From a virus, in IMG/VR virus record IMGVR_UViG_3300005860_000047, positions 1 to 54,873 of that record: a stretch of DNA of 54,873 nt; one strand, written 5' to 3'. Below are positions 2,591 to 51,019 of this stretch, one piece after another. Each line of letters begins with the position of its first letter. Position 1 is the stretch's first letter. Below the pieces are notes generated by a model that saw nothing but the letters and a program-made list of their open reading frames with translations, was not told where the DNA came from and searched no databases. A program made the position numbers and the translations under genes.

Positions 2591-2805
2591 TACCTGACCA
2601 CCACCTGCTCCGAAGTAAGAGCAGGCAAGGACGGCCCCGCTCCCGTAGTGGCGTTCTGCGTATAAGAGGCCGCCAGGTTCTCAGTATGGGTGTGCTGGTG
2701 AAGGGCAGCCCGCAAAGCCGCCACGTCCGCCTGGAGAGCGTTAAACTGCTGAAGCAACTTGGCGATGAGGTCAGCGGGGCAGTCTTTGTAGGTGTAGACC
2801 GGCAT
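2590..2805 (-). CDS. Small hypothetical protein after the capsid gene
   Basis: A 71-aa protein with the strong site TAGGAGG upstream of its ATG. Residues 8-40 form a heptad-like helix (DLIAKLLQQFNALQADVAALRAAL), followed by a H-Q-H-T-H-T run and a Thr/Ser/Pro-rich tail. The helix plus His-rich turn resembles small trimeric fibre or decoration stems, but this is only a suggestion. Confidence 0.6.
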   Translation of the reverse strand: MPVYTYKDCPADLIAKLLQQFNALQADVAALRAALHQHTHTENLAASYTQNATTGAGPSLPALTSEQVVVR

Positions 2806-2817
2806 CCGCTACACCTC

Positions 2818-4050: not shown

Positions 4051-4079
4051 GTGATCTCAACCTCCTTTTCAAAATTTGG

Positions 4080-6633: not shown

Positions 6634-6645
6634 ACGTTCACCGCC

Positions 6646-7662: not shown

Positions 7663-7665
7663 CGC

Positions 7666-7917
7666 CTACACCCCCGCTTCCAACTCCTGCAACTCCTCCG
7701 CCCGGTCAAGCTCCTCCCTGGTAATCGTTTCCAGGGCCTCGGCGGTCTTGTACTGGCCGAAGTCACGCGCCATCAGGCGGTCGAGAAGCTGCGCCCTCTC
7801 CTTGCGCTCGTAATCCAGAAGCTCCACAACGCGCTTCCAATGCTGCCGCGTCTCGTAAAGCAAGAATACCATCGCCGCGAACCAGCACACCACCGCCGCC
7901 GCAAGGGCTTCCGTCAT
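7666..7917 (-). CDS. Small membrane-anchored coiled-coil protein
   Basis: An 83-aa protein. The ATG at 7917 is chosen because GGGGGGAGAAGCGA lies just upstream. An N-terminal hydrophobic segment (LAAAVVCWFAAMVFLLY) is followed by a charged helix (WKRVVELLDYERKERAQLLDRL) with a Glu-rich end. This is the layout of small phage membrane proteins with a cytoplasmic or periplasmic coil. Its role is unknown. Confidence 0.6.
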   Translation of the reverse strand: MTEALAAAVVCWFAAMVFLLYETRQHWKRVVELLDYERKERAQLLDRLMARDFGQYKTAEALETITREELDRAEELQELEAGV

Positions 7918-8189
7918 TCGCTTCTCCCCCCTCGGCGCTTGTGCTCGCGGTGGTGGGCGAGGAACGCGCCCCTGTTGTCGAACTCGGCCCCGCACTTGCC
8001 GCAGACGTACGCCTCCCCGCCGTCGCCCGCGTCCCGCGCTAAAACTACCTCGGAAATCTTCCTCGCGCAGTCAAAACAAATTATGTCAAACCCATGCACG
8101 ACGCACTCGCGGTTCTTCCCGCCTATAGGAGCCTGGCAGAACAGGCAGCAGCCGATTGTGCCAATAGAATACTCGAAATCGAGAAACAT
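7914..8189 (-). CDS. Small zinc-finger protein
   Basis: A 91-aa protein from ATG 8189, sharing TGATG with the stop of the preceding gene. It has three Cys-x2-Cys pairs (CLFC, CFDC, CGKC), and the last pair continues as a C2H2-like finger, C-G-K-C-G-A-E-F-D-N-R-G-A-F-L-A-H-H-R-E-H. It is likely a nucleic-acid or protein-binding zinc protein. HNH-type nuclease residues are absent. Confidence 0.65.
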   Translation of the reverse strand: MFLDFEYSIGTIGCCLFCQAPIGGKNRECVVHGFDIICFDCARKISEVVLARDAGDGGEAYVCGKCGAEFDNRGAFLAHHREHKRRGGRSE

Positions 8190-8380
8190 CAATCACCCTT
8201 CTTTCTCGACAACCGCCTTAATATGGCGGCGCGCTTGTGAGGGTCTTTGATTTTCTTGGCCGCCTCGCGGGCCTTCGCGTAGCTTATCGCGGCCGCCTGG
8301 CGTCGGTCGTATCCCTCTCTTACAAGCTGCCGTATCCGCTCAGAAATAGCTTTTTGGGAATAACCACCCACTAAAGGCAC
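8189..8380 (-). CDS. Small basic phage protein
   Basis: A 63-aa protein from GTG 8380. The start MPLVGGYSQKAISERIRQLVREGYDRRQAAAIS matches a widespread family of very short phage proteins (MPLVKGYS-like starts with a Q-A-x-A-I-A helix) found near head genes. The function is unknown to me. The protein is highly basic and helical and may bind DNA. Confidence 0.65.
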   Translation of the reverse strand: MPLVGGYSQKAISERIRQLVREGYDRRQAAAISYAKAREAAKKIKDPHKRAAILRRLSRKKGD

Positions 8381-8392
8381 AGCACATCACCC

Positions 8393-8977
8393 CTACTTGT
8401 ACACCACGGTCACGTCTCCCGGAGTCCCGCTTATCACCACTGTCAGGCCGTTGTTGAAGGCCACGTCGTACGGATAATGTCCCGCAGCCTTGACGACCCC
8501 TATCACCGCCGCCCCGTCGCGCAGCTCCACCGCCATTCCCGTGCCCGCGTCTCCGACGTTGACGGCGTGCAGCACTCCGGGACCGCTCTTCACCTGCGTC
8601 CCGGCAGTCGCCGCGTTGAAGTGCGCGTAGGAATAAGGACCCAGGCCCTTGGCGTCGAAGTAGCCGAGAGCCGTCACCGCGCCGCCCCTGTACTTCCTCA
8701 CCACGGGGCGGATGTACCTCACGGCTTCCACATCGAAGTAAACCGCGTTGGGATACGAAACGAAGTCCACAATGCCCTTCCCGCAGGCGAGCTTTCCTTC
8801 AAACGGGAACCAGTCCGTTCCGTTCAGGCTGGCTTCAAACCTCACGTCGGCCGCAAAACTGCCCAAAACCTGAATGACGGCCTTGTTGACGTCGGTGCAG
8901 TCCATAGCCTGCCCCGGACCGTCCGCCGCAGCGTTGTTGAGCAATGTGAACAGAGGCAACCCAAACACCTCCCGCAT
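8393..8977 (-). CDS. Beta-rich virion protein, possible decoration or head fibre
   Basis: A 194-aa protein. The ATG at 8977 overlaps the terminase stop (TGATG). The sequence is almost entirely beta-strand: a jelly-roll-like first half (AVIQVLGSFAADVRFEASLNGTDWFPFEGKL, then VYFDVEAVRYIRPVVRKY) and an Ig-like second half (GVLHAVNVGDAGTGMAVELRDGAAVIGVVKAAG). The segment A-S-L-N-G-T-D-W-F-P resembles receptor or decoration proteins that present a beta-sandwich on the capsid. A second copy of a similar C-terminal fold is seen in 51034-51612. The assignment is structural only. Confidence 0.55.
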   Translation of the reverse strand: MREVFGLPLFTLLNNAAADGPGQAMDCTDVNKAVIQVLGSFAADVRFEASLNGTDWFPFEGKLACGKGIVDFVSYPNAVYFDVEAVRYIRPVVRKYRGGAVTALGYFDAKGLGPYSYAHFNAATAGTQVKSGPGVLHAVNVGDAGTGMAVELRDGAAVIGVVKAAGHYPYDVAFNNGLTVVISGTPGDVTVVYK

Positions 8978-36386: not shown

Positions 36387-36849
36387 TCCGGGCGAAACCA
36401 CAGGCTGGTGCGCGGTCCGGCTGCCGGATTTTGAGGTTGCGGCCGGACAGGTAAGAGACGTAGATGCCTTGATACGTGTTCTCGAAGCCCACAAGCCTGA
36501 GGTTGTAGTCGTTGAGGACTTCCGCCTTCGACCAGAGCGGGCGAAGTCGCTTTCCCAGCAGCAACTCCACGCCAGCGAGGTCATCGGCACGGTCGCGGCG
36601 TGGTGCGGGCGCAACTGGGTCGAGCTGGAGCGGCAGCCGGCTAGCATGAGGACGGTCGTCACCCGCGAGCTGCTGGGGCGATTAGGGCTGTGGAGTTTGA
36701 CTAGAAATATGCCTCATGCGAGGGACGCCGCGAAGCATTTGGTTGTGTGGTTGTTGCGAGAGTACCCAGAAGCAATAGTACGACGGTCTAATATGACTTG
36801 TGCAGCGTGGCAAGGCCCAGTCGAGCGCGGCGTGGCGAGGTGTGGCTAG
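36355..36849 (+). CDS. RuvC-like Holliday junction resolvase
   Basis: A 164-aa protein from ATG 36355. It has the RNase-H-fold acidic residues Asp11 in V-V-A-V-D-P-G-E-T-T-G, Glu54 in V-V-V-E-D-F, and His121-Asp124 in H-A-R-D-A-A-K-H. These fit RuvC-type resolvases of phages. It would resolve recombination or replication junctions before packaging. Its last ~18 codons are made of the NNNGG repeat tract that follows, so the C-terminus looks extended by the repeat. Confidence 0.75.
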   Translation: MESPTCVVAVDPGETTGWCAVRLPDFEVAAGQVRDVDALIRVLEAHKPEVVVVEDFRLRPERAKSLSQQQLHASEVIGTVAAWCGRNWVELERQPASMRTVVTRELLGRLGLWSLTRNMPHARDAAKHLVVWLLREYPEAIVRRSNMTCAAWQGPVERGVARCG

Positions 36850-37131
36850 GCCTGGCGCGGCGAGGCAAGGCGAGGGACTACATAGACCCGGCTGGACATG
36901 GCGGGGTTGGGCTTGGTGAGGCCGGGCGTGGCAGGGTTGGGTTTGGTAAGGCTGGGCAAGGCCAGGCAAGGAACTACATAAACCCGGCGTGGCTTGGCAT
37001 GGCAGCGCTCGGTGCGGCCCGGCGCGGCGAGGCAAGGAACTACATAGACCCGGCTGGGCCAGGCCTGGTGCGGCAAGGCGAGACCCGGCGAGGTTGGGTC
37101 CGGCGCGGCGAGGCAAGGCTTGGTCTACATA
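36806..37131 (+). repeat. NNNGG pentamer tract 1 with CTACATA inserts
   Basis: About 320 bp of 5-bp-periodic units ending in GG (for example cgtgg, caagg, cgcgg, cgagg). It is interrupted by CTACATA at 36878, 36974, 37040 and 37125. The first three are followed by (G/A)ACCCGGC. The last CTACATA stands 24 nt before the ATG of the ParB-like gene. Frames through it encode only repeat-derived residues, so it is not a gene. Confidence 0.85.
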
Positions 37132-37155
37132 CCACACTCACAAGGAGGGTTGCTC

Positions 37156-37846: not shown

Positions 37847-38401
37847 ATGCTCCAAGAGTACCGTTTCAAGATTCTGGGCGTCACTCCCCTGCTGATGCAC
37901 GCTCCCACAGCGATGGGAAGCAACGGTAGCAGTCCCAAACGCAAAGAGGTGCCGCCTCCCGAAGAAGAGGCCGAGCGCGGAGCTTACAGAACGCCGGAAG
38001 GCTACTTGTGCTTCCCGGCAATAGCGTTCCGCAACGCTGCTCTCAAAGTAGCTGGACAATATCGGTCCGGCAAGAAAAGCTACAAATCACTGCTCGCGCA
38101 CATCCGTACTGCGGATGAGTTCGTCATCATGCGGCATCCTGAGACATGGGAACCGCTGACATCTTACGCGATTGACACCCGTCGCGCTGTGGTGCAGGGT
38201 CAGGGTGTCATTCGAGCTAGACCGCGCTTGGACGCCTGGGCCTGCGAGGTTGGATTGTTAGGAGACGACGAGATCGGTGTGAGAGACATGGACAAGGTGT
38301 TGCTTCAGTTCTTGAACGAGGCTGGCGGCACTATAGGCGTCGGGGACTTTCGATTGGAGAAAGGCGGTTGGTTTGGCTTGTTCCGGGCGGAACTCGCTTA
38401 A
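37847..38401 (+). CDS. Conserved phage protein of unknown function (TPLLMH family)
   Basis: A 184-aa protein with GAGGAGGTTC before ATG 37847. It starts Y-R-F-K-I-L-G-V-T-P-L-L-M-H-A-P and ends G-T-I-G-V-G-D-F-R-L-E-K-G-G-W-F-G-L-F. I recall this start/end pair from phage proteins near replication genes, but I cannot name a function. A RAMP-like beta-alpha-beta fold is a guess from the Gly-rich ending. Confidence 0.6.
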   Translation: MLQEYRFKILGVTPLLMHAPTAMGSNGSSPKRKEVPPPEEEAERGAYRTPEGYLCFPAIAFRNAALKVAGQYRSGKKSYKSLLAHIRTADEFVIMRHPETWEPLTSYAIDTRRAVVQGQGVIRARPRLDAWACEVGLLGDDEIGVRDMDKVLLQFLNEAGGTIGVGDFRLEKGGWFGLFRAELA

Positions 38402-38410
38402 CACAGGTAT

Positions 38411-38450
38411 ACACCGGAGCCCGGCTCTTTCACGATCCGGGCTCCGGTGT
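38411..38450 (+). terminator. Strong hairpin before tract 2
   Basis: A perfect 14-bp stem ACACCGGAGCCCGG / CCGGGCTCCGGTGT with a 12-nt loop, ten bases after the stop codon. No T run follows. It may end transcription or stabilise the upstream mRNA. Confidence 0.6.
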
Positions 38451-38464
38451 TGGTCACATCGATG

Positions 38465-38712
38465 CTACATAAGTAGGGCATGGCAGGGTGCGGCTAGGCT
38501 CGGTCGGGCAGGGACCGGCACGGCTAGGCGTGGTAAGGCAAGGCGTGGCAGGGAACTACATAAGTCAGGTGAGGCCGGGCGTGGCATGGACCAGCACGGC
38601 TTGGCGAGTTGAAACTAGGCGAGGCAAGGAACTACATACACAGGGCACGGCGCGGTAGGGTGGGGCTGGGCAAGGCGTGGTGGGGTATGGCACGGCTAGG
38701 CATAGTAGGACT
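38465..38712 (+). repeat. NNNGG pentamer tract 2 with CTACATA inserts
   Basis: About 250 bp with the same 5-bp period (cgtgg, taagg, caagg, gctagg) and CTACATA at 38465, 38556 and 38632, followed by AGT(A/C) or CACAGG. It fills the space between the hairpin and the polymerase gene. No gene is present. Confidence 0.85.
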
Positions 38713-38739: not shown

Positions 38740-41025
38740 GTGATTAATTTGGTTGACCCTCTGTGCGAACGATGCCCTCTTCAAGGCCGCCCACAGGTCC
38801 CCGGCGACGGCCCCGAGAAGGCGGCCCTGGTGCTCGTCGGCGAGGCCCCCGGTCGCCGTGAGGCCGCCGAGGGTAAGCCGTTCGTGGGTCGCGCCGGGCA
38901 GTTGTTGGACAAGGCGCTGGCCGAGGCCGGACTGCGGCGAGAGGAGATATACATCACCAACACCTGTTTGTGCCACCCACAGGACAACGCCACGCCCGAC
39001 GCCAAAGCCATAAAGGCCTGCCGTTCGCGCCTAGTCGAAGAGATTAAGACCCGTTGTCCTAAAGTAGTGATTCTGGCAGGCGGTGTACCGGTCAAAGCGA
39101 TCTTCGGCAAAGGGAAGGTAACCGACCTGCGCGGCGCGGCTGTGTGGGTCGAAGAGTTGCAGGCCTATGCGGTTCCGACTCTTCATCCCGCCTTCGTCTT
39201 GCGTCAGCCGAACCTTTATCCCGATCTGGTTCGCGACCTGCGGTACGCCAGGGACGTGCTCCGCGGCACGGTGAAGCCCGTCGAGGTCGGCTGCGACGTG
39301 CAGCTTTTCATCGCCGACGATCCCAACGATGCCCTTGCCCTGGCCCGCCGGCTTGTGGAAGTCAGGGAGGCGGCGGTGGACGTAGAGTGCGCCAGCGACG
39401 GATCGCTTCTTTGCGTTTCGTTTTCATGGAAGCCAGGGACGGCCGCTATACTGACGGCGGAGGCGCTTAAAAGTCCCGCCGTGGTGGCTGCCTTTTACGA
39501 TGCTTTCAGGCGCGTGAAGCTCATCGGCCACAACCTGAAGTATGACCTCAAGGTGTTGTGGCGGCAAGGGTTGTGGAGCGCTAGGACCGGGTTTGACACA
39601 ATGCTTGCGCATTACACGCTCGACGAGCGCCGTGGCACCCACGGCCTCAAGCAACTGGCGCGGCTCTACTTTAACGCGCCAAATTATGACAAAGAAATCG
39701 AGCCATACATCAAGAAGGACGGCCTCGAAAACTGCCCGAAGGATTTGCTTTACAAGTACAACGGCCTCGACGCCTCCTTCACCTACGCCCTGTACCAGAC
39801 GATCACCAAGGAACTCGGCCCGAACGAGTGGCAGGTGCTGAACGACCTCCTGCTCCCCGCGAGCGACGTGTTGGCGGAAATGGAGTATTTCGGTATCATG
39901 GTGGACGTGCCTTACTTGCAGAAGCTCGACGCCGAGTTGACCGCTGAGCTTCTGCGGCTGGAGAAGGAGATGTTCGCCGTGGCCGGTCGAGAGTTCAACC
40001 CCAACTCGCCGAAGCAGCTGGCGCAACTGCTCTACCAGACGCTTGGCCTCCCCTACCCCGGACGGGTGTCCACGGACGAGGATGCCCTGAAGCGGCTTGC
40101 ACCGTACCACGCCTTGCCCAGACTGCTGCTCCAGTACCGGGCAAAGCGGAAGTTTCTGACGACCTACATCCAGGCGTTGCTCGATGCGAAGGACGAGAAT
40201 GACAGAGTACACACAACATTCAATCTCCACGGCACGGTCACGGGGCGCCTGTCCAGCAGCGATCCGGTCAACCTCCAAAACATTCCGCGAGAGGGCGAAG
40301 CTCGCAATATGTTCATCAGTAGTCCGAATTGGTGTTTTATAGAGTGCGACAATTCGCAGGCGGAGATACGGGTTTTAGCATTGTATTCGGGTGACGAAAA
40401 ACTGTTGGAAATATTGGCTACTGGCGGCGACATTCACGAGCGGACGGCACGCATTATGTTCAAATGCTCTGGGGAGGTCAGTAAGGAGCAACGAACAGCA
40501 GCTAAGCGTATAAGTTTTGGTTTGATATACGGGATGAGTACCCAATCGCTTGCCGAAGAGCTTGGCGTAGGTTTCTCCGAAGCGGAGGAATTAGTAGCTG
40601 AGTTCTTCAAAGCATTTCCGCAGACAAAAGCGTGGATTGACGAGACGCAGAAGCGAGCGCTTGCCGAGGGGAAAGTAACCACAATATTTGGCAGAACCAG
40701 ACGGTTTGGGTTGATAACACCGGAGAACAAGAGCGACGTGCTACGACAAGCGGTAAATACTTTAATACAAAGCACGGCTTCGGACTTTTGCCTGTTAGCC
40801 CTCATCGGACTACATCGACGATTGAAGACAGGTGAGTTAGGACGCACGCGGCTAGTGCTCACGGTCCACGACTCGATATTGGTAGAAACAATGGAAAACC
40901 CAAAGGAAATAGGCAGAGTCATATATCAAGAGATGTGTCGGCCAGCGGAAGGGAAGGTCCCGTGGAACGCAGAAGTAAAGGTTGGACTAAGGTGGGGTGA
41001 ACTTCAACCGCTTGATGTGTTATGA
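38740..41025 (+). CDS. Uracil-DNA glycosylase / DNA polymerase A fusion
   Basis: A 761-aa protein. GTG 38740 is the longest start; TTG 38749, with GCGAGGTGAT upstream, is equally possible. Residues 1-165 are a family-4 UDG (Cys9, Cys12, G-E-A-P-G 34-38, G-K-P-F-V-G-R-A-G, H-P-A). The 3'-5' exonuclease shows V-D-V-E, N-L-K-Y-D and Y-N-G-L-D. The polymerase has motif A D-N-S-Q-A-E (Asp537), motif B R-T-A-A-K-R-I-S-F-G-L-I-Y-G, and motif C V-H-D-S (Asp711) in place of the usual H-D-E. It is the replicative polymerase. No 5' nuclease domain is present. Confidence 0.9.
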   Translation: MINLVDPLCERCPLQGRPQVPGDGPEKAALVLVGEAPGRREAAEGKPFVGRAGQLLDKALAEAGLRREEIYITNTCLCHPQDNATPDAKAIKACRSRLVEEIKTRCPKVVILAGGVPVKAIFGKGKVTDLRGAAVWVEELQAYAVPTLHPAFVLRQPNLYPDLVRDLRYARDVLRGTVKPVEVGCDVQLFIADDPNDALALARRLVEVREAAVDVECASDGSLLCVSFSWKPGTAAILTAEALKSPAVVAAFYDAFRRVKLIGHNLKYDLKVLWRQGLWSARTGFDTMLAHYTLDERRGTHGLKQLARLYFNAPNYDKEIEPYIKKDGLENCPKDLLYKYNGLDASFTYALYQTITKELGPNEWQVLNDLLLPASDVLAEMEYFGIMVDVPYLQKLDAELTAELLRLEKEMFAVAGREFNPNSPKQLAQLLYQTLGLPYPGRVSTDEDALKRLAPYHALPRLLLQYRAKRKFLTTYIQALLDAKDENDRVHTTFNLHGTVTGRLSSSDPVNLQNIPREGEARNMFISSPNWCFIECDNSQAEIRVLALYSGDEKLLEILATGGDIHERTARIMFKCSGEVSKEQRTAAKRISFGLIYGMSTQSLAEELGVGFSEAEELVAEFFKAFPQTKAWIDETQKRALAEGKVTTIFGRTRRFGLITPENKSDVLRQAVNTLIQSTASDFCLLALIGLHRRLKTGELGRTRLVLTVHDSILVETMENPKEIGRVIYQEMCRPAEGKVPWNAEVKVGLRWGELQPLDVL

Positions 41026-41489: not shown

Positions 41490-42092
41490 CTAATACCTTA
41501 TTCCGTGGTGGTATGCCAAGTGGTTGAGCAACAGGGCCACCACGAACCACTTCGGCGCGGGGTCGTCCGGCTTGTGGTCGCCGGAGAAAAGCGATGCCAT
41601 CTTGCCCCGTTCCATTATCTGCTCCTTCCAGTTCAGCTCGGTCATCTTCACCATCTCCACAAACTTCTGCCACGGGAACTTGTTGCCGGGGCACTCGGTG
41701 GCGCTCAGCTCCCTGTGGGGCGCCAGCCTGGCGTTCGGGTACCGCGCCAGCAGCCACCGGCACAGGTCGGCGGCGGTGTCGAGTTGTTTGTCCGGCGGGA
41801 CGTCCCGCGAGAAGTCGCCCACGAGACACACGCCGAGGCTCAGGTGGTTGTACCCGGCGCAGTGGGCGCCCTGGAGGTCTTCGGGTCTGGCCCGGTGGGC
41901 CACGCCGTCGGCCGTGACGACGAAGTGGTAGCCGATGCCGGCGTACTTCTTTTCGGTCTTGTGGATGCGGTCGATGTCTTCCACCGTCCAGGTGGGCGGC
42001 GAGGCGCTGTGGTGAACCACGATGAACTGGACGGCCTGGAGCTTGCCTACTTTGCCATTTGGCTGCCACTTGAAGCTTTCGTCGAGGATCAT
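41490..42092 (-). CDS. N-acetylmuramoyl-L-alanine amidase endolysin
   Basis: A 200-aa protein. The amidase_2 (T7 lysozyme-like) domain spans about 15-150, with zinc ligands in V-V-H-H-S-A-S (His27/28) and A-P-H-R-E-L-S-A-T-E-C-P-G, the typical I-G-Y-H-F-V-V-x-x-D-G, and G-A-H-C-A-G-Y-N. The last ~45 residues are helical, with a short hydrophobic stretch, and could be a wall- or membrane-binding tail. It cuts the amide bond between muramic acid and peptide at lysis. Two holin-like genes lie directly upstream. Confidence 0.88.
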   Translation of the reverse strand: MILDESFKWQPNGKVGKLQAVQFIVVHHSASPPTWTVEDIDRIHKTEKKYAGIGYHFVVTADGVAHRARPEDLQGAHCAGYNHLSLGVCLVGDFSRDVPPDKQLDTAADLCRWLLARYPNARLAPHRELSATECPGNKFPWQKFVEMVKMTELNWKEQIMERGKMASLFSGDHKPDDPAPKWFVVALLLNHLAYHHGIRY

Positions 42093-42099
42093 CTGATCC

Positions 42100-42387
42100 T
42101 CACTCTCCCTTACGCAAGCTGTACAGCCCGCTCAGCAGGTCGTGCAGGAAGTTGCTGCCGCGTCCCACAAGCAGGCCGCTCAACACCTGGCCGACGTAGG
42201 GAGCGTTGAGCGTCACGCCCACCGTGGCGAATAGATCAAGCCCGGCGAGCACGCATACCGCCACGCCCAGCCCCAGCGTGATGGCCACGTCGGTCCAGGC
42301 CGGCACCGGCGGGAACGCGGGCTTGGCGGCCTGCCATATGGCCTCAATCAGCAACGCCGCGGCAAGGAAAGCAAAGAATTCCTGCAT
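42100..42387 (-). CDS. Holin candidate
   Basis: A 95-aa protein. ATG 42387 follows AAGGGGGCG. It has a hydrophobic N-terminal helix (FFAFLAAALLIEAIW), a second helix (DVAITLGLGVAVCVLAGLDLFA), a weak third segment, and a charged C-terminus. Size, layout and position before the amidase fit a holin. Confidence 0.7.
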   Translation of the reverse strand: MQEFFAFLAAALLIEAIWQAAKPAFPPVPAWTDVAITLGLGVAVCVLAGLDLFATVGVTLNAPYVGQVLSGLLVGRGSNFLHDLLSGLYSLRKGE

Positions 42388-42389
42388 CC

Positions 42390-42620
42390 TCAACGCCCCC
42401 TTCCGTTTCTCAGTTCACGGGTAAGCTCGCGGATGGCTTCCTTGAGTTCCAACTGGGCTTCGACGCTGTGGGCAATGTGATTTTGAATTGTCTCTACAAA
42501 CTGGTTCATGAGTTGTTCTTGTCTTTGCATAAGCCACTTCACGGTCGAATAAAAAAGCGCCAGCACCACGGCCAGCGCCCCGCCCTGGAGGATCAGTTGT
42601 TCGTTGCCCAAAGCGGCCAC
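42390..42620 (-). CDS. BhlA/UviB-like holin-type protein
   Basis: A 76-aa protein from GTG 42620. One N-terminal membrane helix (LQGGALAVVLALFYSTVKWLM) is followed by a charged coiled coil ending in R-N-G-R-G-R, the layout of BhlA/UviB-family proteins. With the next gene it makes a two-component holin set. Its stop overlaps the holin start. Confidence 0.7.
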   Translation of the reverse strand: MAALGNEQLILQGGALAVVLALFYSTVKWLMQRQEQLMNQFVETIQNHIAHSVEAQLELKEAIRELTRELRNGRGR

Positions 42621-42623
42621 CCC

Positions 42624-43640
42624 CTACCAAGGTCGTCTCAGCTCTACAAGCCTGTTCCCGGCCTGCCAGTTCACCACATACCCCATCCGTTCGGCCACAA
42701 ACCGGATGGGCAGCAGCGTCCTTCCGTCCACCACCTTGGGAGGCACGTCTAGCTGCGCGTACTCGCCGTCCACTATGGCGGTCGGGTTATCGATTTTGAG
42801 TACGATGTGCCGCGCCATCTTCGGCGTGTACGGCACGTCCACGCAGGCCCACGCCTCCATCACGAACGGCCAGCCGATGTCGCGGTCTATCCACCAGTCC
42901 GTCCAGGCAGCGTAAGGCAGCCAGGCAAACCCGCCCTGCCCCCATGACGTGCCCCAGGAGTTCATGATCAGGACGGCGCCGCTGGCGTCGTCGTAGCCCA
43001 CGGCGCAGACGGCATGGCCCCCCAGTAGCTTACCGCCCGGCCTGGGAATAACGTCCACGATGTTGACAAAGCTCTCCGTGACTGCTACCGCCAGCAGCAC
43101 GGGACCCTGCTCCACTATCGCCCGCTTGAGTTCGTCCAGCCCCTTTACCTGGGCGTAGACGCTTATCCTGTACGGCTCGGCGGCCTTTGTGACGCTGTCG
43201 GGAGGACGCGGCAGGTTAACGTCGGTGGTGAGTTCACCGTAAGGTAGCACCGTCTCCGGACAGACGCCGTAGTCCTGAAGCACCTTCATCGCCACGCGGG
43301 GGTAGGTTCCCGGAGTGGACGGTATGCCGTCCAGTTGCTTGGCCATCTGGTAGATGTACCTGGGGGACAGTCCGCCTCCGGGCACGTCTCCCTGTTGCCG
43401 CTCCTGCCACTCCTTGATGGCCCAAGCCGCGTGGCCCACACAGGTCCCCAGCTTACCCTGGTTGCGCACGCCGGGCATCTCGTCCCTGCGGCTGAAGGAC
43501 GGCGGTAAGGGCTGGGTGCCGGCGAAAACAGCGAAGGCGAAGTCACGCTTGTCCGGCGGCGAGGGCCACAGGCCGTAGGACTGACCCAGCTCCTCCAGGC
43601 GGTTGGTTATTTTGCGCCACCGCTCAAACATCTCAGACAC
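42624..43640 (-). CDS. Papain-like (C1) cysteine peptidase with copper-amine-oxidase-like domain
   Basis: Up to 338 aa. GTG 43640 or ATG 43631 may be the start, both after GGAGGGGAGAG. A complete papain set is present: Gln61 and Cys67 in N-Q-G-K-L-G-T-C-V-G-H-A, His209 in G-G-H-A-V-C-A-V-G-Y, and Asn227 in M-N-S-W-G-T-S-W-G. The last ~60 residues (TAIVDGEYAQLDVPPKVVDGRTLLPIRF...) are a copper-amine-oxidase N-domain-like module common on Clostridial surface proteins. No signal peptide is seen. It may be a virion peptidase that digests host surface proteins, or it may process the SpeD/ATP-grasp product. Confidence 0.85.
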   Translation of the reverse strand: MSEMFERWRKITNRLEELGQSYGLWPSPPDKRDFAFAVFAGTQPLPPSFSRRDEMPGVRNQGKLGTCVGHAAWAIKEWQERQQGDVPGGGLSPRYIYQMAKQLDGIPSTPGTYPRVAMKVLQDYGVCPETVLPYGELTTDVNLPRPPDSVTKAAEPYRISVYAQVKGLDELKRAIVEQGPVLLAVAVTESFVNIVDVIPRPGGKLLGGHAVCAVGYDDASGAVLIMNSWGTSWGQGGFAWLPYAAWTDWWIDRDIGWPFVMEAWACVDVPYTPKMARHIVLKIDNPTAIVDGEYAQLDVPPKVVDGRTLLPIRFVAERMGYVVNWQAGNRLVELRRPW

Positions 43641-44001
43641 CCTCTCCCCTCCTCAGAACCGTGACACGTTTCCTTTCCGGCTTGAGCACCCCAACAAGCC
43701 CCTCTACAGCCCGCCGTGCCTTCTCCGGGTCGCCGCAGGTGAAGAAGTCGATGGCGATGAACTCCTGCGCGGGCCAGGTATGAACCGCAACGTGGCTCTC
43801 GGTGAGCGGCACGATCACCGTCACCACGCTGTCGCCGTAGTCGTCGCCGTGCTTCGCCTGCGGGAAACTGAACCAGCACTCGCGGCCAGCCTGCACCATC
43901 CCGGCCTGCGCCACGGCTTGCTTAACCAACTGCGTCAGCGCCGGCCCGTCGGGGATGATGGCGCACCCGTACAGGTCGGCGGCGTAGAGCATGCCTCTCA
44001 T
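43633..44001 (-). CDS. speD: AdoMet decarboxylase-family pyruvoyl enzyme
   Basis: A 122-aa protein from ATG 44001, with AAGGGAGGCG upstream. It has the class-1b SpeD signature L-T-E-S-H (Ser69), H-T-W-P (His74) and D-F-F-T-C-G (Cys89). The +5 and +20 spacing from the Ser matches Ser63/His68/Cys83 of the Thermotoga enzyme. Self-cleavage before Ser69 would create the pyruvoyl cofactor. Phage SpeD homologues have been reported as arginine or ornithine decarboxylases, so the substrate is open. It overlaps the peptidase gene and follows the ATP-grasp gene. Confidence 0.88.
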   Translation of the reverse strand: MRGMLYAADLYGCAIIPDGPALTQLVKQAVAQAGMVQAGRECWFSFPQAKHGDDYGDSVVTVIVPLTESHVAVHTWPAQEFIAIDFFTCGDPEKARRAVEGLVGVLKPERKRVTVLRRGEGV

Positions 44002-44015
44002 GTCAGTCGCCTCCC

Positions 44016-45332
44016 TTAGCCAAGCCATCCGAGCGCGTCGAGCATCTCGAACTGCACCGACGACGCCAAGCCAGTGTCTTGACGGTAAAGCGGATAAGGG
44101 ATAACTTTGATCTGTTCCAACAAGTCATAACACTTATCGACAGCCTCAGGGATGTCGTCTCCTCGGCCGGTCACCACCATCAGATAACCGAGATTGCCGG
44201 CACCGTAGAACTTCCCATCCTTATAGCGCATTTCACTAAGCCACACGTGCCGCAAACCGGTCTTCTCAAGTCCGCGCACCAGCGCGAGCTTGTTTAGGCG
44301 CTCGTCTTCCCTGGGGAATGTCCCTGTGGCCAGCACCACATTGGCCACCCACTTGTCGGACATGCGCGTGGACGCCTGGTCCCTCTGCGCCATCCTCAGC
44401 AGCCACTCGCCCACAGGCTCGTCGAGCAATTCGCACCAGGAATACAGCGTCGGATAGCCCGGCCTGCCGGCCGTGAACTCCAAGGGAACGAAGCTGTCCC
44501 CGTCGAGCACGATGCAGTTGAGATCAATGAAACCGCAATAGCCCCATTCCTGAAGAAGCGGAGCGAGCTTTGCTAAGGTTTCACGGTACAATCTCGCCTG
44601 CGGTATCACGCGGCCGATTTCGCCCATCTGGCCCGTGCGCGGCCCTTTGTCCAGGTCGAGCATTCGCTTGATCTCCTGGTTTAAGTAGCAGGCTTCGTCG
44701 CGGAACCTTTCTCCGTCGAAGAAGCAGGTGACGGCGAACTCTATTCCTTTCGCAGCCTCCTGCAAAACGAAGTCCACGGTCGCGCCGGGAGCAAGTTCCT
44801 GCCAGTTTTCGTCGAGCCAATCTAGGAAGGCGAGCATGTCTTCCGGCTCGTCGGCCACGTACGCCAGGTCGCGGCTCACTTGGCTGTTGTGTTTAAGCGC
44901 CCAGCTGCCGCCGTTTTCCTGTACGAACTTCTTAGCCTCTTCAAAAGACGTGAAGCGGTGCATCGGAACGGTCGGTATGCCCACCTGCTGCATGACCTCG
45001 TAGGCAAACATGCGGTCGTTCTCCAGCCTGGCGACGTTGGGGTGTCCGCCGATGATGAGCTTGTCGGGGTACTTTTCGCGCAGCTCCAGGTACCACGCGC
45101 CGCTGTCGTACAGCGCGTCCCCCTTCGGCTTCTGGCGCACGTCGTCAAAGAAAACCAGGTCGGCTTCCTCCACATAACGGCGCCAGTCGTCCACCTTCTG
45201 GAGGATGCCGTCTCCGCAGTCGCTCTCCACGTCGCTGTGGACGTAATAAAAAACCTCATGGCCCTCTGCCATGAGGCGTATCGCCAGGCCGACCGTCTCG
45301 GCCAGGCAGGAGACAATCAGGAACCTTGCCAA
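44016..45332 (-). CDS. ATP-grasp carboxylate-amine ligase (PurD-like)
   Basis: A 438-aa protein from TTG 45332. An N-terminal pre-grasp domain (FLIVSCLAETVGLAIRLMAEGHEVFYYVHSD) is followed by an ATP-grasp fold with A-L-K-H-N-S, the catalytic strand F-V-L-Q-E-A-A-K-G-I-E-F-A-V-T-C-F-F-D-G-E, and the metal-binding G-F-I-D-L-N-C-I-V and L-E-F-T-A-G-R-P-G-Y-P. The layout resembles phosphoribosylamine-glycine ligase. No purine genes are near. It stands 14 nt before speD and could couple the SpeD amine product to a carboxylate. Confidence 0.8.
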   Translation of the reverse strand: MARFLIVSCLAETVGLAIRLMAEGHEVFYYVHSDVESDCGDGILQKVDDWRRYVEEADLVFFDDVRQKPKGDALYDSGAWYLELREKYPDKLIIGGHPNVARLENDRMFAYEVMQQVGIPTVPMHRFTSFEEAKKFVQENGGSWALKHNSQVSRDLAYVADEPEDMLAFLDWLDENWQELAPGATVDFVLQEAAKGIEFAVTCFFDGERFRDEACYLNQEIKRMLDLDKGPRTGQMGEIGRVIPQARLYRETLAKLAPLLQEWGYCGFIDLNCIVLDGDSFVPLEFTAGRPGYPTLYSWCELLDEPVGEWLLRMAQRDQASTRMSDKWVANVVLATGTFPREDERLNKLALVRGLEKTGLRHVWLSEMRYKDGKFYGAGNLGYLMVVTGRGDDIPEAVDKCYDLLEQIKVIPYPLYRQDTGLASSVQFEMLDALGWLG

Positions 45333-45376: not shown

Positions 45377-45535
45377 ATGATAATTTTCATTACCTTCATG
45401 ATCGGTTTTTGCATAGGCATGATCATCAGCGTTGACGTGCACCGCGGCTTAAACCACTCCACCTGGGACATCGTTAAAGATGGGCTGATGTGCGGCGCGT
45501 TCAGCGTAATCCTCGGCGTGATGGCAAGTTACTGA
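45377..45535 (+). CDS. Small membrane protein on the opposite strand (moron candidate)
   Basis: A 52-aa protein with AAGGAGGTG before ATG 45377. It has two hydrophobic helices (IIFITFMIGFCIGMIISV and MCGAFSVILGVMA) joined by a short polar segment. It is the only convincing plus-strand gene in the late module, with its own promoter, and its end overlaps the minus-strand gene by 7 nt. This is the usual form of a lysogenic-conversion gene such as a superinfection-exclusion protein. Confidence 0.65.
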   Translation: MIIFITFMIGFCIGMIISVDVHRGLNHSTWDIVKDGLMCGAFSVILGVMASY

Positions 45536-48500
45536 GCCAACTGCTCTATACGCCGCGTAGTCGCGCCCGGACCGAGCACGGTGTCAGACGGCTTCTCGCG
45601 CCGCATCAGCTGCCTGTGGTACTGCCACACGTCGCGCAGGGTGACTTCCTCTTTCCTCTTGCCGAGCGCCCTGGCCAGCCAGCTAAGCTGGCTGTCGCTG
45701 AAAAGGAATTGCAGAGTCCGCTCGCGGTCGCGCGGGTCGTCCTGCGCAAAAACGAGCCGCATGTGCCACAGGTGTGCCGGCAACGGATCGGTGCGGAAGT
45801 ACTTTTTGAACAACGCTTTGCTCTCCGGCGAGAACACGTTGGCAATTGCCTTGTTCCTCACTTCTGGCGGCAGGCCGAGGATGTCTAGCGACTCCACAAC
45901 ATCCTCTTGAGACGGCACCTTGCCGAGGACAGAGGCAAGCCACTGCATCCAGGGCTGGGAAAGAACCACCCTCTCGGTAGCCTGCCCAGCTCTGGGTCTC
46001 GCCGGGACTTTCCACAACATTCCCTGGCGGGCGGCTTCTTTTACCCGCGCTTTTTCTTCCACAGCAGCGGACGGGACGGAGCCGGGTGTCAACCTGACGC
46101 CGAGAAGTTCGGCAGCCCACCTCGGCAGATCAAACCTGCCGGTGGGCGTGCCGGACCACCCACCCATGAGAGAGAACCCGGCGCCGGCGACGTTCAACGT
46201 TCCCGCAGGGAAGAACAAGTCAACTAAGTCCTTCAGAGCCATGCCGAGGTTCGCTCCGAGGCCCTGTCCCAGGAATCTCTGCTGCGTTGGGTCGTACCCG
46301 AAGAGGTCCATAGCCACAGTCCACATCGGCGCCATCTTGAACTCCAGGTACCGTATCAGATTGCCCTTGCTCGCGTACTGAACCAAGCGTGGGTAGTCGC
46401 GCTCCCAAAACCACGGGTCGAAGTACTGCCTTTCACCGCGCGGCCCCGTGCCCACCAAGGGGGTGATGTCTATTAGGTGTCTGTAGCCCGGCGGGTTCTC
46501 CCATATGTGCCTGCCGTTGTTCAACTGGCGGTTGACGGCATCGGCCAGCGCCAGCGTGGCCGTAACAGTGTGGGCTAGGTACTGCGCGGCCAGGTCGCTG
46601 ACCAGTTCCTGCGCCGCGGGCGAGAGGGTGACGTCCGGCGCGACACCGACGGCCACAAGCGGAAGCTGTAGGGTGTGTGTGAGCCACCTGGGCGCCAGCG
46701 CAAGCGTGTTGAGGAAGCCCTGCAACGTCGGGTGCAGTGTGTGCAGGTCAACGTGGCCGGTGAGGTAATTGGCAGTCGAAGCAGCGGCCTTGGCGGCTTC
46801 CTCTTCGCCCAGACGCGGCAGCCACCGCCTGTAGAGGTCGAGAGCTAAGCCGATGCGCATGTTGACGGTCGGCCCGAACGACAGTCTTTCTATTGCTTCC
46901 GTAGCCCGGTCGAGCGCGTGCCCGGCCACGCCTAGGGCGCTCTTAAGCGGCTGGCGCAACGCTTCGTACGTCTCCGCGCGCCATCCGGTTCCGCTCACGT
47001 CCAGCCCGGCCTCCACCAGCTTCGCCAGCTCAGGCGATACCCGGTCGAATGCCTCTTTCCCAGCTCTCCACCGCGCGAGCCCGTTCACTATCCGGTTGAC
47101 CGGGCTTAGAACCTCGGCGAATCCCTTGCCTGCGGGGCCTGCGACGGTGTAAATCATCTGCGTCACCCAATCAAACGGCTGCAAGACTTTTATGCGGGTG
47201 ATCGCTCGGGACAGCTCCATCAAGGCCCGCTTGAAGTCGCTGTCCGTCCTGAAGTAATACTGCAACCGTTTCTCCAACCATTGCTGGGCATCCCGCGGTA
47301 GGCGTGGCACCGGGCGCTTTTCCAGCTCGGCTAATCGTTTCTGAGCCAAACTCTCCAGCCTACTTTCCACAGCTAGCGTGCCAGCGCCGCGCTTCAGGGC
47401 CTCCCTCGCCTTTTCTACTGCCTGCTCTATGTCTTTCCTGCTCAGGCGCTTTTTCCCAAGGGCGGCGGCAACTTCGTCCAATGCCGTCGAAACGTCCGCT
47501 CCCAACTGCGTCTTGGATACCACAACCCGGCGGAGGTTGTCGGCGACTGCCTCCGCAATGCTGCGCCTGCTCGCGCCTCTGGCAGCCATAGCCTTTTGCA
47601 GTTCCCCAGCCAAGGGATGATTGCCGCTCAGTTGCCTCAAAGCCTGCTCAAGCGAACGCTTGCTTACCGACTTCCCTCTGAGGGCGCGCTCCAGCGCGTC
47701 GAGAGCCAGAGCCTCCGGCGACCCCAAGCCGCGTACAGAAGCCAGAGCCTGTTGAACTCTTCCTATCCTGCGGGCCATCATCCGCTCGTAGTCAGCCACC
47801 AGCTGCTCCGGGAGGCTTAGTCCAACCAAAGGTTGCTTGCCAAGCCCGGACGCGGCGCGCTGTTCCGCCAACTTGGCAAGGCGTTGCAGGCGGTTGACAA
47901 AGCGGGCACGCTCCAACATCTGCCGCAGCTCCATAGCGTGGAATGGTATGGTGTGCGCCGTGTCCAGAACCACATCCGGCCCGAATTTCACTAGCGCGTC
48001 CTCTAAAGTGTGACCCCTGGGCAGCGCGTGGACGGAGAAGCGAGTCGGCTTCCGGGTGAAGATCAAACTACGCGCCAGGTTGCTTACCTGGGCACCCGTC
48101 TTTCGCACCCCGCGCTCCGTGATGTACAGGGGAACGTATCTCTCACCCGGCTGCTCCCACAGTTCCAGAAGGCCGATGCGTTGCAACCTACGGGCGACGT
48201 TCTGACCCGCGTCATAAACGCTCTTCAGGTGCTTGGCGTAGTTGGCAATCACCTCGTCAGGCACCTGCGCCAGCTCGGCGCGGATGGACCGCAGCGCCGC
48301 CGCCGCTTCCTGGTTGCCCAGATTAGCTGCTCTCTGCTCCACCGCGGCTATGCGTTGCGCCAGCGTAGTCTTCCAGCCCTGTGGGCTGAGCAGTTCGTTC
48401 TCCGGCAGCCACGCGAGGGCCATGCTCCCGGCCTTCCGCAGCGCTTCATGCCCGGCAGACGTTCTCTCCAGGACCCGCGCCATGAGGCGTCCAGTTTCGC

Positions 48501-49113
48501 TGGCCACGCGGACGGCCTTGGGATACTCGGCAAAGATGCGTTTAACCTGCCCGAGTTCTTCGCTCGCGCGCGCCAGCAGAGGTTTCCGTGCCAGCTCAAC
48601 GACCTTGCCCAACTCGCGCAGGCCGAGATAAGGGACGGTTGACCAGAAAGCTGTGCTGACGGCGCCCTTCGCAGCACCCTCAGGCACCGGCTTTCCTTCC
48701 TGTCTAGCCTCCGAAGCCCCGCCCCACGCTCCCACCAACGCGCCCTCAAGCCCCATCGCAGCGGCGCGGGAAAGAATCGACCGTCCGAGAGCCGCAGAGA
48801 TACCTGCCAGGTTAAGCGCGCGGCCAACCGGAACGGCCATCAGTCCCCAACCAGCCGTACTGCCCACGACCTCCGCTACCTTTTTGGCCTTGGGAGACAG
48901 AAGACCGGCCTTCTCCAGACGTTCGCCGTACCGCCTGGAACGCAACAGTCCCATCATCGGCACGTCCAGAGCCTTCATTTCCGCATAGCCCACAGGGGCC
49001 AAAACCCTAGCTATGCGCGGCGCAGCCTCGCGGGCCTCCTGCGCTACCTTTCCCGCCACTTTAACTGCGACGCTTTTTATCCTGTTTTTTACCGCGTCGA
49101 GGAAACTTGCCAT
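45529..49113 (-). CDS. Very large internal virion / ejection protein
   Basis: A 1194-aa protein from ATG 49113, overlapping the transglycosylase stop (TGATG). It is Ala/Leu/Arg-rich and largely helical, with a Gly/Ala-rich amphipathic N-terminal part (VVGSTAGWGLMAVPVGRALN..., GALVGAWGGASEARQEG), several long coiled coils, and a C-terminal part that includes D-I-T-P-L-V-G-T-G-P-R-G-E. This is the type of internal virion protein (compare T7 gp15/gp16) ejected with DNA in podoviruses. The neighbouring transglycosylase, encoded separately, fits the same ejectosome. No catalytic motif is visible. Confidence 0.7.
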   Translation of the reverse strand: MASFLDAVKNRIKSVAVKVAGKVAQEAREAAPRIARVLAPVGYAEMKALDVPMMGLLRSRRYGERLEKAGLLSPKAKKVAEVVGSTAGWGLMAVPVGRALNLAGISAALGRSILSRAAAMGLEGALVGAWGGASEARQEGKPVPEGAAKGAVSTAFWSTVPYLGLRELGKVVELARKPLLARASEELGQVKRIFAEYPKAVRVASETGRLMARVLERTSAGHEALRKAGSMALAWLPENELLSPQGWKTTLAQRIAAVEQRAANLGNQEAAAALRSIRAELAQVPDEVIANYAKHLKSVYDAGQNVARRLQRIGLLELWEQPGERYVPLYITERGVRKTGAQVSNLARSLIFTRKPTRFSVHALPRGHTLEDALVKFGPDVVLDTAHTIPFHAMELRQMLERARFVNRLQRLAKLAEQRAASGLGKQPLVGLSLPEQLVADYERMMARRIGRVQQALASVRGLGSPEALALDALERALRGKSVSKRSLEQALRQLSGNHPLAGELQKAMAARGASRRSIAEAVADNLRRVVVSKTQLGADVSTALDEVAAALGKKRLSRKDIEQAVEKAREALKRGAGTLAVESRLESLAQKRLAELEKRPVPRLPRDAQQWLEKRLQYYFRTDSDFKRALMELSRAITRIKVLQPFDWVTQMIYTVAGPAGKGFAEVLSPVNRIVNGLARWRAGKEAFDRVSPELAKLVEAGLDVSGTGWRAETYEALRQPLKSALGVAGHALDRATEAIERLSFGPTVNMRIGLALDLYRRWLPRLGEEEAAKAAASTANYLTGHVDLHTLHPTLQGFLNTLALAPRWLTHTLQLPLVAVGVAPDVTLSPAAQELVSDLAAQYLAHTVTATLALADAVNRQLNNGRHIWENPPGYRHLIDITPLVGTGPRGERQYFDPWFWERDYPRLVQYASKGNLIRYLEFKMAPMWTVAMDLFGYDPTQQRFLGQGLGANLGMALKDLVDLFFPAGTLNVAGAGFSLMGGWSGTPTGRFDLPRWAAELLGVRLTPGSVPSAAVEEKARVKEAARQGMLWKVPARPRAGQATERVVLSQPWMQWLASVLGKVPSQEDVVESLDILGLPPEVRNKAIANVFSPESKALFKKYFRTDPLPAHLWHMRLVFAQDDPRDRERTLQFLFSDSQLSWLARALGKRKEEVTLRDVWQYHRQLMRREKPSDTVLGPGATTRRIEQLAQ

Positions 49114-49499
49114 CAGCCGATCCCCGCCATTCTCATGACTTCGGAGACGAAGTTTCTAGTCTCTTTGTAAGGCGGAACGCCGCCGTACCTATCCACCGCT
49201 CCCGGCCCCGCGTTGTAAGCCGCCAGAGCCAAGGTCCAGGAGCCGTAGCGGTCAAACAACTGCTTCAGGTACTTGGCACCGCCAAGCAGGTTTTCAATCG
49301 GGTTCCACGGATTAACGCCAAGAGCTTTAGCCGTGGACGGCATCAGTTGCATCAGGCCGATGGCCCCTTTCGGCGACACAGCGCTCGGGTTCCCGCCGCT
49401 CTCCGCCATCACCACAGCGCGCAAGAGCTTGGCAGGCACGCCGACGGCGCTGGCTACGGAGCTGATCGCACTGGCTAGCCAGTTGGAAGCCCTAGCCAT
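49113..49499 (-). CDS. Lytic transglycosylase (SLT), virion-associated
   Basis: A 128-aa SLT-fold enzyme. Glu33 in [20 protein letters not shown] is the catalytic acid. L-M-P-S-T-A and [12 protein letters not shown] complete the family motifs. It cleaves the peptidoglycan glycan strand, probably during DNA entry. It is encoded alone rather than fused to the large ejection protein. Confidence 0.88.
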
Positions 49500-51019
49500 T
49501 CCCTTGCCTTGGAGAAAAAACCAGCACCACCACCGCCGGAGGAACCGGAAGAGGCAGATTGGCCCGGAATCTGCTGGCCTTGGTTGGTCGCCATAGCAGC
49601 CTCATTCGGCCATCGCTTGCGAATGAAATCCATTACCCTTCCTATGTCGAATGTGATTGCGCTTTCGCCGCTGAGTATAGCGTTTGTCCAGCCAGTAAGT
49701 ATATCGACGGCCTCGTTAAAGGTCTTCGCCGTGTTTACAGAAGCTATTACGCGCTCTGTACCGGCGTCTTTCGCAGCTTTCTCCTGCGCCGTCTGCGCCT
49801 TCAACTGCTGCGCAGCCGCCTTCAGCTCAAGGTCCTTCCACTTCTGCGCCGTCTGCGCCTTCCTGTACTCCACAAGCGATTGTGTCGCCAGCTCCTTGGC
49901 CGCCGTCTCCCGTTCTTTCAGTCCAAACTCTTTCTCCTTCAACGCCTGCTCCGCTAACCACTTCTGTATATCGAACTGCTGCTTGGCAAGCTCGGTTTCG
50001 TATTGCAGGGCAGACTGCTGCGCCGCCTGCTGCCGCTCGGCAAGCCAGGTCTTCAGGGACTTGGCGATGTCGAAAGCCTTCTCCGCCAGGCCCGACTGTA
50101 TCTGGTAAGCGGTCTGCGCCGCGCCCATACCCAGCTCGATGGGCTTCATCACCGCCGCCTGGTAGAGGTTAGCTAGACCAGAGGCGTAGTTGGCCTGCAT
50201 CCGGGCGTACTCCAGGGCGGCGTTGTACATTTGCTGGTGCTGCTGGTCGAGCCACTGAGCAAGAAGTTTCTGCTCCTCTTCGAGCTGGCCTTTGTAGAGC
50301 TTCTGGCGCATGTCGGCGGCGATACCCGAGCGGTAAATGCCCCGACGGATCATTTCCTCGTCCAGGGCCTTGAGGTTTTCGTCCGTCTGCTCCTTCAAGA
50401 GCTGGATGGCCAGCTTCACGCTCTCGGGCACGTCGCTTCGCGGCTGCATGAGCTGCTGGAGCTGCGCCAAAGCCTGCGAGTACTGCTGCTGGTACGCCTG
50501 AAGCATCGCCAGCCCCGCGTCGCCGTACTGCTTGACGTAGTTATTTATAGTGTTGAGGTAGGTGCTGGCGATGTTGTTCATGTTGGCGAGAAAGTCCTGC
50601 GCCATCGAAGTCAGCTCGGTGTAAGTCTTCTGGTAGGGCGGCGTAACGCGCTCTTCAATGGCCTGGACCTTGCTCTCGGGGACGTAGGCGGTTCCTCCCG
50701 CAATTCCGCTCGGCTTGACCGTGGCCTTGTAGAGGTAAGGATTGTCCGAGTGACCCACGGTGACGGTTCCCGTGTCCGGGTTGTAAGTCACCCGATAGCC
50801 TTTCTCCTCGAACGTAGACCGCACCGGAACGAGTTTTTCAGTATCCTTGAAGTATTGCTGATAGTCCTTCATAAACTCCTGTGCCGCTGGGAAGTCGCTG
50901 AACGGCTGCCCGGACGCGATCTTGGCCTTGATAGCCTCGGCGTAAGCCTCGGGGCTGCCGAAGTACTTGATGTACTTCTGGTAGGAGGGTTCGGTTTTTT
51001 GAGCGGTTGCAGTAGCCAC
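49475..51019 (-). CDS. Internal virion coiled-coil protein with [12 protein letters not shown] motif
   Basis: A 514-aa protein from GTG 51019, with AAGGGAGGTG upstream. Residues 16-50 ([27 protein letters not shown]) nearly match the start of the protein at 6646-7662. The centre is a very long Gln/Ala-rich coiled coil (residues ~165-425). It ends in a Gly/Ser linker and R-E-W-L-G-L-P-T-G. This is the layout of podovirus ejection proteins. It overlaps the transglycosylase gene by 25 nt. Confidence 0.7.

What the first reader, a model, noticed from the sequence alone, without database searches (positions are those of the whole stretch)
42624..45332. Late cassette of ATP-grasp ligase, SpeD-type decarboxylase and papain-like peptidase
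Three enzymes not needed for virion building lie in one overlapping operon between internal virion genes and the lysis genes. SpeD keeps all catalytic residues with exact spacing. The ATP-grasp enzyme is intact but has no purine pathway around it. The peptidase has the full Cys-His-Asn-Gln set. A decarboxylase that makes an amine, next to a ligase that joins amine to carboxylate, suggests a small conjugated amine or a modified peptide/protein. Possible roles are charge neutralisation of packaged DNA, virion modification or a host-directed product.
Basis: partly seen in the sequence, partly recalled or inferred. Interest (0 to 1): 0.78.

Follow-up and report, generated by a model that had tools for sequence, protein, structure and literature searches.

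The report
Phage amine-making and amine-joining enzyme pair
A bacterial virus carries, beside its cell-bursting genes, a decarboxylase likely to make a small amine and a ligase likely to attach that amine to something else; the ligase belongs to a large, apparently undescribed family that in some bacteria also sits among polyamine genes, so its product can now be looked for directly.

Summary
The three genes are real and intact: ATP-grasp (44016-45332 -), SpeD-type decarboxylase (43633-44001 -, start corrected) and papain-like peptidase with a C-terminal stalk domain (42624-43640 -). The linkage is not chance. Three other phage contigs, with ATP-grasps 54-65% identical to this one, carry all three (order changed in one), and a fifth carries ATP-grasp plus SpeD. 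The ATP-grasp has the full GAR-synthetase (PurD) fold but lacks PurD signature motifs. It belongs to a family (87 proteins aligned, 15 residues invariant) that usually follows an ejection-protein gene in P22/T7-like podoviruses; PHROGs has no match. Only the five SpeD-linked members share a Q150/R153 loop and they form one clade. Chromosomal relatives lie in a polyamine operon (Patescibacteria) and beside arginine/ornithine-type decarboxylases (Planctomycetota). Best reading: SpeD makes an amine and the ligase amidates it; substrate and product are unknown. The peptidase more likely belongs to the neighbouring lysis module, since its relatives in other phages that I inspected sit beside holin and endolysin genes. 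SpeD keeps its processing residues but has Ala where AdoMet decarboxylases keep an acidic residue, so AdoMet may not be its substrate.

The parts
44016..45332 (-). PurD-fold ATP-grasp ligase (438 aa, TTG start), SpeD-linked clade of a phage/bacterial family
   Evidence: PF01071 E 3e-13, weak PF02843, TIGR00877 96.6 bits against cut-off 288; AlphaFold model pLDDT 88, top 15 PDB hits all GAR synthetases, TMq 0.70-0.78; 15 residues invariant in 87 relatives
43633..44001 (-). SpeD-type pyruvoyl decarboxylase (122 aa; corrected start ATG 44001; ORF opens at 44028)
   Evidence: PF02675 E 2e-21; Shine-Dalgarno and homologue N-termini; Ser/His/Cys kept, HTWPE replaced by HTWPA
42624..43640 (-). papain-like (C1A) peptidase with C-terminal Cu_amine_oxidN1 'stalk' domain
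   Evidence: PHROG 16701 peptidase E 1.7e-25
42390..42620 (-). small membrane ORF, probable lysis (holin-like) gene
   Evidence: position and one transmembrane-like stretch; no family match above cut-off
42100..42393 (-). small membrane ORF, probable holin (PHROG 20258, unknown function)
41490..42092 (-). Amidase_2 endolysin
   Evidence: PF01510 E 7e-22, PHROG 822 amidase E 3e-35
45529..49113 (-). 1194-aa internal virion (ejection) protein just upstream of the cassette
   Evidence: position after SLT and tail-region genes; no family match, assigned by position as in relatives
49113..49499 (-). SLT transglycosylase, internal virion enzyme
   Evidence: PF01464 E 1e-28
45377..45535 (+). small divergent membrane ORF between the ejection protein and the ATP-grasp
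   Evidence: Shine-Dalgarno AAGGAGGT before ATG; opposite-strand small or secreted ORFs at the same place in L007 and L102

Best explanation
Two modules meet here. (1) SpeD autoprocesses to a pyruvoyl enzyme and decarboxylates an amino-acid-type substrate to an amine; the PurD-fold ATP-grasp uses ATP to activate a carboxylate as an acyl phosphate and joins it to that amine, giving an amide such as an aminoacyl- or peptidyl-polyamine. Shown: folds, conserved active-site residues, genetic linkage of the pair in five diverged phages, and linkage of chromosomal relatives of the ligase to polyamine enzymes. Inferred: that the two enzymes act in sequence, the identity of amine and carboxylate, and the benefit late in infection. 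(2) The peptidase belongs to the lysis module and probably cleaves cell-envelope or S-layer protein at lysis; it is a neighbour, not a step of the pathway.
For: ATP-grasp+SpeD+C1 together in window, L007, L102 and L103; ATP-grasp+SpeD in L187. SpeD-linked ATP-grasps form one clade (99/99) and they alone of 87 share loop residues Q150/R153 (5/5 vs 0/82). Catalytic residues invariant; full PurD fold. Chromosomal relatives: G286 operon CASDH-like / ATP-grasp (19-bp overlap) / ornithine-lysine decarboxylase (PDB match E 1e-65) / homospermidine synthase (E 1e-104), with a MetK-like gene nearby; G529 and G619 next to a PLP Orn/Arg-type decarboxylase and PvlArgDC; G063 next to MetK. Genomes G046 and G047 hold a second match that looks like ordinary PurD. 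Peptidase with lysis genes: L102 Amidase_3-SLH and holin, L103 SLT, L105, L115, L117, THSA-485A GH25, MMB025 'endolysin'.
Against: Of the 43 other phage records searched (nearly all with this ATP-grasp), L007 is the only ATP-grasp carrier with SpeD, so in most phages the ligase must take another amine or do something else. The five SpeD-linked phages are one clade, so the linkage may be one acquisition kept by descent. Only 3 of about 33 independent chromosomal contexts show polyamine or AdoMet genes, one of them MetK only; by a crude guess about 1 would be expected by chance. No substrate-site evidence. L102 retains Glu after HTWP, so the SpeD substrate may differ among the five.
Confidence: 0.5

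Rival explanations
1. The ATP-grasp is a late-expressed or virion-borne enzyme that acts on the ejection proteins or the packaged genome; SpeD was added in one lineage to supply the amine used in that modification (for example polyamine attachment to virion protein).
For: The ATP-grasp sits directly after a ~1000-aa ejection-type protein in 67 of 73 loci that have the latter, and a GNAT lies just before the ejection block in 20 loci; in L187 the pair lies among ejection-protein genes.
Against: Position alone; chromosomal relatives have no virion genes around them; no peptide substrate motif was looked for.
Confidence: 0.25
2. SpeD is a plain polyamine-boosting auxiliary gene (AdoMet decarboxylase using host SpeE and putrescine, or an ornithine/arginine decarboxylase) and the ATP-grasp is functionally unrelated; co-occurrence is common descent of neighbours.
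For: Phage SpeDs of this kind are known and can make spermidine, agmatine or putrescine (PMC9992855, PMC10407285); SpeD is widespread in phages without this ATP-grasp.
Against: SpeD stays with this ATP-grasp in 5/5 members of the clade although gene order, lysis genes and neighbouring ejection genes changed; the ligase loop differs exactly in the SpeD-linked clade.
Confidence: 0.2
3. All three genes form one pathway making a modified or cleaved peptide, with the C1 peptidase processing the conjugate or its target.
For: Four of the five phages carry all three.
Against: L187 has no C1 in its 19-kb contig; C1 relatives in other phages that I inspected stand with lysis genes or are annotated as endolysin; in L102 an amidase separates C1 from SpeD.
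Confidence: 0.12
4. The ATP-grasp is a phage GAR synthetase for purine supply.
For: Same fold and PF01071/PF02843.
Against: Far below the TIGR00877 cut-off; PurD motifs GGREHA and GGR(V) replaced; no purine gene among the neighbours scanned; two bacteria with a family member hold a second match that looks like PurD.
Confidence: 0.03

Closest known systems
GAR synthetase (PurD, phosphoribosylamine-glycine ligase)
   Same: Full-length fold, including N, ATP-grasp and C domains (TMq 0.70-0.78, about 20% identity)
   Different: N-terminal GGREHA and C-domain GGR motifs lost; EFN becomes EFT, RFGDPE becomes RPGYP; family-specific invariant D269, N271, C272; no purine genes seen nearby
Peptide/polyamine ATP-grasp-type ligases (glutathionylspermidine synthetase, E. 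coli YgiC/YjfC peptide-spermidine ligases, the latter known to me through the reference list of PMC12568646)
   Same: Proposed chemistry: ATP-dependent amide between a carboxylate and a polyamine
   Different: Not tested as homologues of each other here; the phage protein's fold hits are GAR synthetases first
Class 1b AdoMet decarboxylase and its ODC/ADC derivatives in phages (PMC9992855, PMC10407285)
   Same: Pfam family, Ser/His/Cys processing and catalytic residues
   Different: Ala instead of Glu/Asp after HTWP in three of the five linked phages and Leu in one; genes sit with an ATP-grasp, a linkage for which I found no report
Phage C1A peptidases near lysis genes (THSA-485A, Alicyclobacillus MMB025, PHROG 16701)
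   Same: C1A fold family and lysis neighbourhood
   Different: Extra C-terminal stalk domain; in MMB025 the peptidase is part of a longer protein annotated endolysin

Membership tests
PurD / GAR synthetase (TIGR00877) | whole-protein score at or above the curated cut-off (288 bits) | tested here: not met
   96.6 bits
PurD / GAR synthetase (TIGR00877) | N-terminal GGREHA and C-domain GGR motifs | tested here: not met
   replaced in the aligned family
PurD / GAR synthetase (TIGR00877) | three-domain fold | tested here: met
ATP-grasp superfamily, catalytically competent | ATP-binding Lys and Mg-ligand acidic residues kept | tested here: met
   K146, D269, E284 invariant in 87/87; roles assigned from general knowledge of the fold
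Polyamine-amide ligase | ATP-dependent amide formation with a polyamine | not testable with these tools
   only genomic context
Class 1b AdoMet decarboxylase | family profile and Ser/His/Cys processing residues at correct spacing | tested here: met
   PF02675 76.6 bits, above cut-off; TIGR03330 72.6 bits against cut-off 75.65, just under
Class 1b AdoMet decarboxylase | acidic residue after HTWP (substrate ribose contact, from general knowledge) | tested here: not met
   Ala in window, L007 and L103, Leu in L187, Glu in L102; Glu in S-PM2, Asp in phiYS40, both validated AdoMetDCs (PMC9992855)
Class 1b AdoMet decarboxylase | activity on AdoMet rather than ornithine or arginine | not testable with these tools
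   needs purified enzyme
Papain-like C1A peptidase | Gln, Cys, His, Asn active-site set | tested here: met
   invariant in four phages
Polyamine pathway of a phage (SpeD+SpeE) | spermidine synthase present | tested here: not met
   PF01564 absent from four contigs; contigs may be fragments, so the absence is weak

The most novel reading that the evidence does not exclude
A widespread, previously undescribed family of PurD-fold ligases in podoviruses and some bacteria makes polyamine (or related amine) amides late in infection, in some phages with their own decarboxylase, giving a new conjugated polyamine used for genome packaging or ejection, or for virion modification.
Probability: 0.3. Interest if true: 0.78.

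Novelty: new variant of a known kind. Interest (0 to 1): 0.6.

Why it matters
Polyamines matter for phage DNA and translation, yet no phage polyamine-conjugating ligase of this kind was found in the papers searched. This gives a concrete, testable enzyme pair, a family with invariant residues that PHROGs does not match, and bacterial relatives in polyamine operons that can be assayed in isolation. It also offers a candidate role for a gene that usually follows the ejection proteins in many environmental podoviruses.

Tried and rejected
Close-relative scans with the single ATP-grasp found nothing. PHROGs gave no family for five members tried. BFVD fold search found only partial ATP-grasp matches. 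GAR synthetase, pseudo-enzyme and single-pathway trio readings rejected or downgraded as above. Substrate assignment from published SpeD diagnostic residues: the text names residues without positions, so it could not be applied; a conserved Pro is said to mark AdoMetDC, but validated phiYS40 has Ile at the HTWP proline position. E-64-type inhibitor synthesis (ATP-grasp plus amine; PMC12568646) considered because its targets are papain-like peptidases; no warhead-forming gene was noticed, kept only as a thought. hhalign of A11 against A6 not used because the sets overlap. A DNA-hypermodification role was not excluded but no supporting gene was looked for systematically. Literature searches combining ATP-grasp with internal virion protein found no paper.

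Full report
OBSERVATION. The three ORFs are present and intact with clear family matches. They lie on the minus strand after a 1194-aa protein and an SLT transglycosylase and before two small membrane ORFs and an Amidase_2. The portal matches P22_portal, so this is a P22-like podovirus; ORFs resembling an integrase and a repressor (by eye, not family-tested) suggest it is temperate. SpeD should start at ATG 44001 behind GGGAGG; it then begins 14 bp after the ATP-grasp stop codon.

THE LINKAGE IS REAL. The closest ATP-grasp relatives found in IMG/VR (2.9 million contigs, pattern-based scans) are L102 (65%), L103 (57%) and L007 (54%). All three also carry SpeD and the stalk-bearing C1 peptidase. 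Orders: window and L007 ATP-grasp-SpeD-C1; L103 ATP-grasp-SpeD-small ORF-C1; L102 ATP-grasp-C1-Amidase_3/SLH-SpeD-holin. A fifth contig, L187, has ATP-grasp then SpeD among ejection-type genes and no C1 in its 19 kb. The neighbouring lysis genes, and the ejection genes between window and L007, have changed while the pair persisted.

THE WIDER ATP-GRASP FAMILY. A profile scan matched 187 viral contigs, 80 kept. In the loci studied the gene directly follows a ~1000-aa ejection-type protein (67 of the 73 loci that have it) and precedes a tail-fibre-like or lysozyme gene. In MW202796 the ORF is not annotated. PHROGs has no match. Across 87 aligned members K146, Q190, E197, E219, K221, G229, T232, G233, D269, N271, E284, T286, R289, G291 and P293 never vary, which speaks against a pseudo-enzyme. 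The model (pLDDT 88) matches GAR synthetases first (15 of 15 top hits, TMq 0.70-0.78), but PurD's GGREHA and GGR motifs are replaced and the score is far below PurD's cut-off.

CO-VARIATION WITH SpeD. Only the five SpeD-linked proteins carry Q150 and R153 in the loop after the ATP-binding lysine (5/5 vs 0/82; Fisher p 3e-8, ignoring phylogeny). They form one clade (99/99), sister to chromosomal homologues (90/84), so this is one origin kept by descent, not many independent ones.

CHROMOSOMAL RELATIVES. Present in 11/287 Patescibacteria, 30/392 Planctomycetota and 1/399 Pseudomonadota sampled. In G286 the gene overlaps a carboxyspermidine-dehydrogenase-like gene by 19 bp and stands with an FMN-reductase-like gene, an ornithine/lysine decarboxylase (E 1e-65) and a homospermidine synthase (E 1e-104) on the same strand, with a MetK-like gene nearby. 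In G529 and G619 (near-identical here) it follows a PLP Orn/Arg-type decarboxylase with a pyruvoyl-dependent arginine decarboxylase beyond. In G063 it precedes MetK. Counting G529/G619 once, 3 of about 33 contexts have such genes; I guess about 1 by chance, so this is suggestive, strongest for the G286 operon. In L091 a relative follows a double ATP-grasp protein with L-amino-acid-ligase and D-Ala-D-Ala-ligase domains.

SpeD SUBSTRATE. Ser, His and Cys for processing and catalysis are kept at T. maritima spacing. After HTWP the five have Ala, Ala, Ala, Leu and Glu, while 61 of 70 other phage SpeDs scanned have Glu (p 0.003, ignoring phylogeny). Two biochemically validated phage AdoMetDCs (PMC9992855) have Glu (S-PM2) and Asp (phiYS40) there. 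Phage SpeDs that became ornithine or arginine decarboxylases are published (PMC9992855, PMC10407285). No spermidine synthase gene is on the four contigs. AdoMet is therefore doubtful; ornithine, arginine or another amino acid remain open.

PEPTIDASE. C1 relatives in other phages that I inspected lie with holin, GH25, amidase or glucosaminidase genes or are annotated as endolysin; in L102 it adjoins an amidase with an S-layer-homology domain. I assign it to the lysis module.

MECHANISM. Shown: genes, folds, conserved residues, linkage. Inferred: decarboxylase supplies an amine, ligase forms an amide. Unknown: both substrates, product, timing and benefit. Rivals are listed separately.

LIMITS. 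IMG/VR records may be fragments, so absences are weak. Only the best 80 of 187 matches were kept. Greedy ORF calls in GC-rich loci are unreliable, so some chromosomal neighbourhoods were not readable. Nothing was assayed.

Noticed in passing
window 38740-41025: DNA polymerase I fused to an N-terminal uracil-DNA-glycosylase domain; similar-looking fusions stand near the cassette in L102 and L103.
   Followed up: partly
window 45377-45535 (+); L007 9751-9939 (-); L102 3740-4480 (-): An opposite-strand small membrane or secreted stalk-domain ORF sits between the ejection protein and the ATP-grasp in three of the phages; the proteins do not look alike by eye.
   Followed up: no
L331 (Pseudomonas phage ZRG1, OQ504961) 2413-8111: SpeD lies beside a ParB-N-domain gene and near the terminase and an Nmad5 'nucleotide modification' gene; a DNA-modification role for the amine there is possible.
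   Followed up: no
L004 (Moorella phage MTATph1) 5815-6171: SpeD gene sits between two genes annotated as major head protein in a thermophile phage.
   Followed up: no
L286 (genome G184) 7202-9946: Two tandem copies of the chromosomal ATP-grasp in one Patescibacterium.
   Followed up: no
window 49475-51019 and 6646-7662 (-): Two virion-region proteins share a start like '[15 protein letters not shown]'; the first has a weak stalk-domain (Cu_amine_oxidN1) match.
   Followed up: no
window about 36682-37137 and 38373-38658: GC-rich repeat-like stretches giving repetitive translations (such as ARLGRAGTGTARRGKARRG) in probably spurious frames.
   Followed up: no
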